64,000 nucleotides of DNA. Origin: Utricularia gibba (lineage: Eukaryota; Streptophyta; Magnoliopsida; Lamiales; Lentibulariaceae). Both the position numbers and the translations under genes were made by a program. Under the pieces are notes generated by a model, which worked only from the letters and a program-made list of their open reading frames with translations, did not search any database and was not told where the DNA came from. Of the stretch, positions 10,796-60,264 are shown piece by piece (the stretch's first letter is position 1; each line of letters opens with the position of its first letter). The stretch covers positions 2,294,001 through 2,358,000 of the forward strand of contig NEEC01000013.1 in the NCBI GenBank assembly GCA_002189035.1, in the 5' to 3' direction.

Positions 10796-11877
10796 ATGGT
10801 CTTGCTGCTTCATCCATTTCTGATAATGATAGGAGTTAGGATGGAGTTCGGGCCGGCGCATCTCGTGATCGCCGCCGCACTCATGGCGGATCTTGTGGAT
10901 GCTCAAGCCAGTAGCGGGGGCAGTTTTAGCGATAATCCGTATAATTTCGCGCAGTTCAATCCACCCATCGCCAGCATCTTGATTGCCCTGGTGGCGGCGC
11001 TTTTCGTCATGGGCGTCTGCTCAGTATACCTCCGCCGCTGCAGCGACGCCCCTGTTTCGGTGGGTAGTATCCGAAGAGGTCTTTCTATGCGCACGCGGCG
11101 AGGTGTGGCGGCGCGTGGACTGGATCAGGAGATCATCGTGAATTTCCCCACTTTCTCCTATGCGGAGGTGAAGGAGCACAAGGTCGGGAAAGGCGCCCTG
11201 GAGTGCGCCGTTTGTTTGAACGAATTTGTCGAGGATGATACGCTGCGTTGGCTACCGCACTGCGATCACGTTTTCCATCCGGAGTGCATCGGCGCGTGGC
11301 TCGCACACCACACCACTTGCCCCGTGTGTCGGGCGGACTTGACCCACCCCGCCCAATCGCCACCGCTGGAGCCGCCGGGAAGCAATCGGGTTGGCTCGAG
11401 AAACGGTGAAATCGTCGTACAAATAGATGACTCTGAGACCATCGCCGCCCCAGGAACCCCATCCCCAATTCCGAAACCCTAAACAGTTCACCAAACTTCA
11501 AATCCCATTCCACAGGGCACTCGCTGGTTCCTGTAGGAGAGACTCTAGATCGGTTTACTCTGCGATTGCCGGAGGGAGTGAAGAAGGAGGTGATGGAGAG
11601 GTCAAAGTTGAACAGAGCCAGAAGCTACGCCGGTGGTTCCGCTCCAGCGTTCAGAAGCGGCGGCGAAGAAGACGCCAGCCGCGGCAGCGCAAGGTCTAAC
11701 CAGACACTCTCAGAGCGATGGGTAACAATCCGGCGAGCTTTGTCGATGAAATCGCCGAAAGTGGTCAGTGACGGCGGCAGCCGTAGTACGTCGAGAATGG
11801 CGTCGCTCAAGTGCCTGGAACCTAAACCCGCGGAAAGTCCAAATGGCGGCGGCACTAACGCCAACCTACACGTGTAG
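10796..11877 (+). CDS. ATL-family RING-H2 E3 ubiquitin ligase (ATL6/ATL31-like), frameshifted
   Basis: Intronless, as is usual for ATLs. Frame one (10796-11482) has a hydrophobic N-terminus, a transmembrane segment (IASILIALVAALFVMGVCSVY, ~61-81), the GLD motif (GLDQEIIVNFPTFSY) and a complete RING-H2 finger (CAVCLNEF ... CDHVFHPEC ... CPVCR, ~139-180). It then stops at 11480. The family's C-terminal blocks continue in another frame: SHSTGHSLVPVGE, RFTLRLPEGVKKEVMERSKL, ERWVTIRRALSMKSP and MASLKCLEPK, ending at 11877. One missing base between about 11437 and 11476 explains this. ATL6 and ATL31 are membrane ligases controlling carbon/nitrogen response and defence; their C-terminus binds 14-3-3 proteins. 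Alternative starts are 10826 and 10841. The product is either truncated or an assembly artefact. Confidence 0.8.
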
Positions 11878-12447
11878 CTTCCGGGTCGGGTTCATTTTTC
11901 AAAGTAATACATACCATTTTGCATTTTGTACCCCTTTAAATCCTTGTTCTTATACTATTGCCCCTCATTTTTATATAAATTTCTTTAGCACCTATTTTAA
12001 AAATTGAATCTTGATAAAAAAAAAAAGAAAGAACTTGTAATTATTTTAAAATTGCAGATATTTAAATTCTGGTTTCATTTGAAATATTCATTATTGCTCA
12101 GAGAATTCTTAAGATGAATGAAGAATTCTCCAGTGCATGTTCAGATTTCCAAAGAATTCTAGAAATTTCTAAAGAGATAGGGAACTGGAATGGATTTAGA
12201 AACTTCCTGGTAAGGGTCTTGTTGACTCTGGTGAATCCATCTACTACAAGCAAACTGAAAACAAGGGGCAAGAGACCACCATGGCAACTCGTCCGGAACC
12301 CGTTAACTGTTCAGAACCGCGGTTCCAAGGTTCGTAAAATACATTGAGCCGGTCCGATACTGTACGGGTCCGGAACCAAACAAAAAGTTGAAAACCTGAA
12401 CTGGGAACGAAACCGGGATGCGGTTCCAGTTCGAACCGGTCCCAACA
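11878..12447. other. Convergent 3' spacer of ATL and PRP38 with GGTTCC-rich patch
   Basis: The left part is AT-rich. From about 12285 to 12445 the sequence is dense in GGTTCC, GGAACC and CCGGTCC words, including the palindrome GAACCGCGGTTC near 12313, right up to the PRP38 stop codon. This word pattern is often seen in the subterminal regions of plant DNA transposons, so a short element remnant in the 3' UTR is possible. No terminal repeats or target duplication could be defined. Confidence 0.35.
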
Positions 12448-58051: not shown

Positions 58052-58853
58052 TACGTCAACGAGGCCTTTCTCAAATTTTCAATGTTTTCACATGGCTTCT
58101 GGTGAGTTCCTCCATCTTTGATATCTCCTCGGTTCAGTATGTCTGTGAATCAGAGATGGTACAGAATATGTGTGATTGCGGATATGTATGTATGGACTCG
58201 AGGTGATTGGAAATGCGTGATACAAGGAACTCTTGATTTCAGATGATTGAGATCTCAGTGCAACTTCAGAAACATGTCTTGATTATTTGCTTCATCATCC
58301 TCCGTTTTTCTTTTCTAGCCCTTGGAGCTTCAAGGTCTGCTGCGTGAACTCTTTCGTTTTTCTTCTGAGATTTCGTATAGCTACTGCTATGTTGCCTATG
58401 GTGCGTTTAGCTCTCAGTGGTATCACTAATAAAATGACTTCTTGCATAACTAACTTCTCCTCCTTTTGGTATTAAGCGTTGGAAGCATTTGTTCACATTT
58501 TCATTAAGCTACTAATCATCATTCTCCAACTTCTACTTGTTCAGTCATGAACACGAGTAGATTCATTGAGGGAGCAAGAGGAAGATGATCATTCTCCGGA
58601 TTTGATTGATTGCTCTATTGAACGTAGAACTTTGGCTTCTCCTTCTCCATCACAAGCCCTGTAATCGATTACCGACATGCAAGCAAGTTGAATAACTGTT
58701 TGTGGATGGGAATCCAGTGGAGAACGTGTTGGGGATCAAGGAACAGAACACAAAGAAACAGAACAAAGTAGAAGATGCAGGCGCTGATCTCCAAGTGACA
58801 GCACAGTAGTTGTAGCAGACGAGTGAGGGGAGGCAGCTGTGCTTGGCGGCGGC
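58052..58853. other. Convergent 3' spacer, VPS35 and ROP
   Basis: This holds two 3' UTRs. An AATAAA lies at about 58428-58433, within the VPS35 3' side. No other feature was recognised. Confidence 0.4.
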
Positions 58854-60264
58854 TCACAATATGGAGCACGACTTCTGCCCCTTGGCCTTTTTCTTCTTCT
58901 GCTTGGGTGGCTGGAGCACAACCTTAATCGCAGCATCGAACACCCCCTTCACGTTCTGCTTGCCATTCAAAACAATCCCACAACTCCATCATTTTCTTCA
59001 CCCGTCTAAATTCAAAAGGAAGCCACCCACCTGTTGCGTTTTCGAACTGCATTCGATGTACGCCGGCGACCCGATCGTCTTCCTCAGCTCCTCCCCCTGC
59101 AACCAAGCTACCAAATGTCGAGCACACCGTCCTCGATCCTAAATGGAGACAGACAACGGTCGGTCACCTGAACTGTGCTGATAGGAACAGCGCCAGGATG
59201 CTCCTCCAAGAATTGCTGATCATCGCGAAGATCTGACGCCATTTTCGGCATGCCAACCCATCAGCTAACAAGGAAATGTGGAGGATGGGTTCCAAGGAAG
59301 GAACTCACCGAGCTTCGTGCCGACGAGAACAATCGGGACGCCGGGGCGTAGTGCTTCAACTCCGGTATCCACTGAGCATCGGCTTTTTCAATAAGTTGCA
59401 GGTGTGGGAGGTAGGGTTTTGGGAAAATGCTTCATGAAACCAGACCATTACCTTCTTGGAAACATTTTCGTAGCTGGCCTTGCTGATCAGAGAAAACGCC
59501 AATATGAAAACATCAGCTCCACGGTAACTCAAGGGCCTCAGCCGGTTGTAGTCTTCCTGTCCTGTTACCGCAGAAGCACGCCATTACCAGGCACCAAAAT
59601 GGCCTTGAAGAGCAGCAGCAGCACACACTTACCAGCAGTGTCCCACAATCCCAGGTTGACAGTGCTTCCATTGACCACCACATTTGCGCTGAAGTTGTCG
59701 AAGACGGTGGGCACATAGTCCTGTTCCAGAGAACACCCGCTCTCAGTAGAGTGATATTGATTCGGATGACGAAGAACTAGGTAAAAGGAAGAAGCTCTAT
59801 CAATCAGGAGTATGATATCACCAATCTGACTTCAAGAACACACTACATTTGATATTGAAAAACTGGCGTTCAGGTGGGAGAGCATCATCTTTCTGGTTTC
59901 TAATAGCCCCCCAGTTCGCTGTTTGTTATGTGCTGCAGAATGGAGATATGCACATTCCTTGGCTCCTTCCCAATCCAGATCTGATACGGATGGGGAATTC
60001 GCATTCGGAAAACTATGTATGATTTATACACCCTTTTAAGCCTCATGGAGATGGAAGCAATGCTAACAGGATGAAAGGAAGAATCACACATGCTACAGAT
60101 GATCGTGATTAAAATCCATTTCTCAGAAACATACATCGCCATGAGATAAAAGAAGACAAGCCTGACCGTGGGAAGGTGTTGCTGGTGTAGGAGATCAAAA
60201 GGCAGGTTTTGCCCACTGCGCCATCGCCAACAGTCACGCATTTTATGAATCGAGAGGCGCTCAT
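58854..60264 (-). CDS. ROP/RAC GTPase, type I (CSIL tail), two frameshifts
   Basis: Exons: 60264-60167, 59720-59633, 59561-59452, 59371-59309, 59232-59168, 59096-59031, 58955-58854. They total 592 nt, two short of the 594 needed for a standard 197-aa ROP. ROPs are plasma-membrane switches for polar growth, actin and NADPH oxidase control. All G motifs are present: [14 protein letters not shown], the effector loop [34 protein letters not shown] and ECSSKTQQN. The tail [16 protein letters not shown] is a polybasic region with a CaaL geranylgeranylation box. Exon 1 ends one C short (run at 60170-60172) and exon 4 one G short (about 59341), so neither reads through. The seven-exon layout and splice sites are otherwise perfect, which argues for sequence error. 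Confidence 0.93.

What the first reader, a model, noticed from the sequence alone, without database searches (positions are those of the whole stretch)
10796..60264. Six single-base homopolymer indels across five otherwise intact genes
By checking every exon length and phase I find ATL (one base short), PRP38 (one short), formin (one extra), VPS35 (one short) and ROP (two short). Five map to homopolymers of 2-7 bases; the ATL one most easily fits a C run. Splice sites, domains and protein ends are otherwise intact in all five genes. Nine other full gene models (RAD9, PME, HGSNAT-like, SRC2, MED14, coiled-coil, TMT2, PSAT, SNAPIN-like) are clean. This is about one event per 4-5 kb of coding DNA and is the signature of long-read assembly that was not fully polished. 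Gene predictors would wrongly shorten or split these genes.
Basis: seen in the sequence. Interest (0 to 1): 0.7.

Follow-up and report, generated by a model that had tools for sequence, protein, structure and literature searches.

The report
Homopolymer undercalls breaking plant gene frames
Five one-base gaps in four otherwise healthy plant genes are almost certainly typing errors of the long-read genome assembly (runs of the same letter written one letter too short), and the same error turns up all over this genome; it is an ordinary artefact but it would mislead gene annotation.

Summary
Five of the six claimed indels are real features of the assembled sequence: ATL (1), PRP38 (1), VPS35 (1) and ROP (2). 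Each is exactly one base short, at or beside a homopolymer. Paralogs in the same genome, or human PRPF38A for PRP38, read through in one frame. The sixth, a base too many in the formin, is wrong: all 14 exons from 42011 to 36523 splice into one open frame with a full FH2 domain. The correct count is five deletions in four genes.

The interpretation as assembly error is strongly supported by a genome-wide test. Among 35 GRAS loci elsewhere in the 100-Mb assembly (42.6 kb aligned), 14 carry frame breaks: 21 one-base deletions, 1 insertion. They sit at homopolymers far more often than chance, mostly C/G. The undercalled fraction of C/G runs rises from about 5% (length 4) to 10% (5-6) and 5 of 5 (7). 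HSP70 and KCS genes show the same. Homologous poly-C tracts in separate GRAS genes are each one base short. A truly decayed UGT fragment in the window looks quite different. Reads or transcripts, not available here, would settle individual sites. Ordinary artefact; low interest.

The parts
10796..11877 (+). ATL-type RING-H2 E3 ligase gene, intronless, broken into two frames
   Evidence: Pfam zf-RING_2 E=3.9e-13 in the first half; second half HSTGHSLV...LPEGV in another frame; paralogs L059/L060 are one ORF
11437..11479 (+). interval of the one-base deficit in ATL; holds C4 runs at 11448-11451, 11457-11460, 11463-11466 and C3 at 11477-11479
   Evidence: frame change bounded by paralog alignments
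12462..15147 (-). PRP38 (PRPF38A orthologue), only copy of this type found in the assembly
   Evidence: PF03371 E=1.8e-31 and 8.1e-12; ungapped to human PRPF38A
14099..14105 (-). A7 (T7 on +) run, one base short at an exon donor of PRP38
36523..42011 (-). formin 3' part: 14 exons, fully in frame; claimed extra base rejected
   Evidence: spliced translation open to stop, FH2 3-371/372 in one stretch
   Evidence: relative L061 has the same exon
52085..58052 (+). VPS35 retromer subunit gene
   Evidence: exon-by-exon match to paralog L014 and to PDB VPS35 chains
57863..57870 (+). GGGGTCCC, one base short in the last VPS35 exon
58857..60264 (-). ROP small GTPase gene
   Evidence: Ras domain E=3.9e-39; many ROP paralogs in the genome, 11 of them fetched
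59341..59346 (-). ROP exon 4, GCCCCGGCGTC: one base short; closest paralog L006 reads GCCCCCGGTGTC, so the C4 run (59343-59346) is the likeliest place
60170..60172 (-). ROP exon 1, TTCCCACG: one base short; exon is 98 nt
60920..61450 (+). decayed UDP-glycosyltransferase-like fragment (contrast case: a true pseudogene)
   Evidence: pieces in several frames with missing segments and stops; family assignment from the residues by eye, not searched

Best explanation
The five sites are consensus errors of a long-read assembly: the true genome has one more base in each homopolymer, and the genes are intact in the plant. Mechanism (established for PacBio continuous long reads, inferred here): raw reads drop bases in homopolymers, the consensus step resolves an ambiguous run to one base too few, and without short-read polishing the deficit remains. 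It should hit coding and non-coding DNA alike, but shows only where a reading frame exposes it. Shown here: one-base size, deletion bias, homopolymer association rising with run length, genome-wide occurrence, intact protein on both sides. Inferred: the sequencing platform, the polishing history, and that accurate reads would carry the extra base.
For: All five are minus one base and lie at or beside runs of 3-7. GRAS loci across the assembly: 35 loci, 42,604 aligned bases, 21 deletions and 1 insertion in 14 genes; longest run within 6 bases averages 3.9 against 2.8 at random positions, runs of 6 or more 23% against 0.7%, 0 of 10,000 resamplings as high. C/G undercalled fraction by inferred true length: 4.7% (4), 10.8% (5), 10% (6), 5 of 5 (7); A/T 0-0.8%. 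Protein identity is similarly high on both sides of most breaks (e.g. 90/90, 100/100), so the frame was under selection until now. Separate GRAS genes L018, L019 and L022 are each one short in the homologous Pro-Pro poly-C. HSP70 L062, L063 and the C304/C241 gene, and KCS genes on C4 and C413, show the same minus-one splits. C/G runs of 7 or more: 2 seen, 8.6 expected from a third-order Markov model. Published rate after Quiver alone: 561 such deletions in ~3.2 Mb (PMC4888979). The assembly (100.09 Mb, 516 contigs, many of 2-8.5 Mb) fits the Utricularia gibba HGAP/PacBio assembly (PMC5793159), an inference.
Against: No reads, transcripts or second assembly were available, so no single site is proven. 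One C/G run of 7 in the window (PSAT, 48881) is correct. The HSP70 break is present in both the C304 and C241 copies, which a random error would not give unless the run is undercalled systematically (or the break is real). The rate differs between families (about 1 per 2 kb in GRAS, 1 per 4 kb in HSP70, fewer in KCS).
Confidence: 0.94

Rival explanations
1. True loss-of-function mutations: one or more of the genes (most plausibly ROP with two deficits, or VPS35, which has a paralog) are young pseudogenes or null alleles in this plant.
For: ROP and VPS35 have paralogs in the genome, so loss would be tolerable; the presumed lineage is known for gene loss (general knowledge).
Against: Apart from the one-base deficits no stop or splice-site lesion was seen in the exons examined; 14 of 35 GRAS genes would also have to be very young pseudogenes broken almost only by one-base homopolymer deletions; PRP38 has no other copy of its type; the real pseudogene next door (UGT-like, 60920-61450) has many lesions.
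Confidence: 0.04
2. Wrong gene models: the apparent shifts come from misplaced exon boundaries or natural C-terminal differences.
For: This is exactly what happened with the formin.
Against: ATL and the last VPS35 exon change frame inside a single exon with homologous sequence on both sides; ROP exon 1 and exon 4 fail against paralogs with the same exon structure; at the PRP38 junction no other usable GT or AG was seen by eye.
Confidence: 0.01
3. Programmed ribosomal frameshifting or transcript slippage restores the frame.
For: Homopolymers can be slippery; several GRAS genes break at the same Pro-Pro tract.
Against: In-frame paralogs at the same sites do not need it (ROP, VPS35); sites differ between genes; A7 in PRP38 sits at an exon junction; no known case in these plant families (general knowledge).
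Confidence: 0.01

Closest known systems
Residual one-base homopolymer deletions in PacBio consensus polished with long reads only (PMC4888979; Watson and Warr 2019 as cited in PMC9985148)
   Same: one-base size, deletion bias, homopolymer location, rate of the order of one per several kb, frames of real genes broken
   Different: nothing essential; here the bias is strongest in C/G runs and the rate in C/G-rich coding DNA (GRAS) is somewhat higher
Decayed plant pseudogenes
   Same: broken reading frames
   Different: here a single lesion type, introns and splice sites kept, protein conserved on both sides

Membership tests
long-read homopolymer consensus error | length change of one base inside a homopolymer | tested here: met
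   five of five confirmed sites have a run of 3-7 at or beside the deficit; GRAS sites enriched for runs
long-read homopolymer consensus error | deletions outnumber insertions | tested here: met
   5:0 in the window; 21:1 in GRAS
long-read homopolymer consensus error | error chance rises with run length | tested here: met
   C/G undercall 4.7%, 10.8%, 10%, 5 of 5 for true length 4 to 7
long-read homopolymer consensus error | occurs throughout the assembly, not in one region | tested here: met
   GRAS, HSP70 and KCS breaks on C1, C2, C3, C4, C142, C213, C244, C255, C304, C328, C375, C412, C413, C414, C416, C451, C480 and C496
long-read homopolymer consensus error | accurate reads of the same individual disagree with the assembly | not testable with these tools
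   no reads or transcripts held
pseudogene | accumulated stops, larger indels, lost splice sites | tested here: not met
   none found in the exons examined of the four genes; clearly met by the UGT-like fragment
programmed frameshift | shift site conserved in homologs | tested here: not met
   ROP and VPS35 paralogs are in frame without a shift
programmed frameshift | slippery heptamer with downstream structure | not tested
   not pursued because paralogs do not need a shift

The most novel reading that the evidence does not exclude
Some of the breaks are real in the plant, meaning that this compact genome has an unusual burst of homopolymer contraction (for example from weakened mismatch repair) that is being tolerated or recoded.
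Probability: 0.02. Interest if true: 0.7.

Novelty: not a real feature. Interest (0 to 1): 0.1.

Why it matters
Only as a warning. In this assembly about one gene in three of a conserved family (GRAS) carries at least one probable false frameshift, so claims of gene loss, pseudogenes or truncated proteins based on it need read-level checks. The C/G-run bias means proline- and glycine-coding tracts are hit most.

Tried and rejected
Formin indel: rejected after splicing all 14 exons. Laying the whole genome in the Python box was not possible (100 Mb is over the limit), so single families were sampled. Comparison of redundant contigs (C241/C304, C316/C412): about 12.8 kb at about 99.5% identity, with 32 mismatches and 7 one-base indels mostly in runs; compatible with errors but confounded by real haplotype or duplicate differences, so not used as proof. 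The original Utricularia gibba PacBio genome paper is not held, so its polishing steps could not be read. GRAS loci L021, L025, L028 and L033 were left out because of introns or poor alignment; about five further intact GRAS genes were not fetched, so the true fraction broken is nearer 14 in 40. Rfam found nothing in the window.

Full report
What was claimed.

Setting. The window is contig C375, bases 2,294,001-2,358,000, of an assembly of 100.09 Mb in 516 contigs. Contigs that were touched are often 2-8.5 Mb long. Size, contig number and the plant genes fit the Utricularia gibba PacBio assembly made with HGAP at 88x, contig N50 3.4 Mb (review PMC5793159).

Site by site. ATL: the RING-H2 half is open to 11482, while the C-terminal half with the HSTGHSLV motif is in another frame that starts upstream of that stop. 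Paralogs L059 (68% identical in the C-terminal query) and L060 carry both halves in one ORF. The deficit is one base between 11437 and 11479, an interval holding three C4 runs. PRP38: on the minus strand the exon ends TCA AAA AAA G before GTACTT, and the next exon begins A TGG ACA; one base is lacking, and with it the protein aligns without a gap to human PRPF38A through KKRW/QKRY. VPS35: the last exon changes frame inside GAAGGGGTCCCTCAA; the paralog on C412 (L014) reads FEKGNPQI through in one frame, and the other VPS35 exons correspond one to one. Whether the missing base is a G or a C cannot be told; a C would give KGSPQI, closer to the paralog's KGNPQI. ROP: exon 1 is 98 nt where an in-frame exon needs 99 (TTCCCACG against e.g. 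TTCCCCACT in L003), and exon 4 has GCCCCGGCGTC where the closest paralog L006 has GCCCCCGGTGTC. All junctions were checked and the spliced 3' part of the gene, 14 exons from 42011 to 36523, is open to its stop; FH2 matches over positions 3-371 of 372 in one piece. Exon 38485-38444 is 42 nt and phase 0 on both sides.

Is it local or genome-wide? If the cause is the assembly, the same breaks must occur elsewhere. GRAS genes are mostly intronless and were used as probe. A frameshift-aware protein-to-DNA aligner was written and each locus aligned to its best intact relative from the same genome. In 35 loci and 42.6 kb there are 22 breaks in 14 genes: 21 one-base deletions and one insertion. The longest run within six bases of a break averages 3.9 against 2.8 at random positions, and runs of six or more occur at 23% of breaks against 0.7%. 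By base and inferred true length, C/G runs are undercalled in 8 of 171 (length 4), 4 of 37 (5), 1 of 10 (6) and 5 of 5 (7), A/T runs in 2 of 239 (4) and in none of 42 longer ones (counts derived from its table, each deletion being assigned to the longest run nearby). The aligned GRAS coding regions contain no C/G run longer than six. In L018, L019 and L022 the break falls at the homologous Pro-Pro poly-C tract (C5, C6 and C6 as assembled), which is what a sequence-dependent error does. Protein identity is similarly high before and after most breaks.

Other families agree. HSP70 genes L062 and L063 and the C304/C241 gene each have one minus-one break; in KCS genes the splits on C4:3824190-3825055 and C413:4947230-4947912 have the same sign (computed from the coordinates). 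C/G runs of seven or more are scarce in 210 kb (2 seen, 8.6 expected), while A/T runs are not cut off; this is supporting evidence only.

Rate. Five in the window's coding DNA, about one per 2 kb in GRAS, about one per 4 kb in cytosolic-type HSP70. A Quiver-polished PacBio consensus of a 3.2-Mb Enterococcus genome was found to hold 561 one-base homopolymer deletions when Illumina reads were aligned, about one per 5.7 kb (PMC4888979). So Quiver polishing alone, which HGAP includes (PMC5793159), would leave errors of this kind and order.

Why not real mutations. A real pseudogene lies in the same window: a UDP-glycosyltransferase-like fragment at about 60920-61450 with pieces in several frames, stops and missing segments. 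None of the four genes looks like that. It is also not credible that a third of a transcription-factor family became pseudogenes so recently that little but one-base homopolymer deletions is visible.

Limits. No reads or transcripts were available, so each site stays individually unproven. The HSP70 break shared by the C304 and C241 copies is the one observation that random error does not explain by itself; a systematic undercall of that G run, or a real lesion, would. The nine 'clean' genes were only spot-checked, so the window's own rate is approximate.

Verdict. It is a known kind of artefact and of low biological interest.

Noticed in passing
62447-64000, continuing at least 3 kb beyond the window (L015): Tandem repeat with a 346-bp unit, copies about 85-89% alike; satellite-like array next to the ROP gene.
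   Followed up: partly
60920-61450: Decayed UDP-glycosyltransferase-like fragment in several frames.
   Followed up: partly
L055/L056 (C241 and C304), L057/L058 (C316 and C412): Small contigs C241 (31 kb) and C316 (38 kb) duplicate parts of large contigs at about 99.5% identity; likely haplotigs or recent duplicates.
   Followed up: partly
contigs C1, C2, C505, C409, C507: Five of 26 contigs whose length was seen are exact multiples of 2,500 bases (8,500,000; 6,192,500; 3,452,500; 2,492,500; 642,500), as if contigs had been cut at fixed-step coordinates.
   Followed up: no
48881-48887: The window's only C/G run of seven (in PSAT, QGGL) is read correctly, so not every long C/G run is undercalled.
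   Followed up: partly
L055 and L056 (C241 and C304 HSP70): Both copies of one HSP70 gene show the same frame break (from the coordinates); the aligner puts it at GGAGGGGGCACC in the C241 copy. Either a systematic undercall of a G run or a real lesion.
   Followed up: partly
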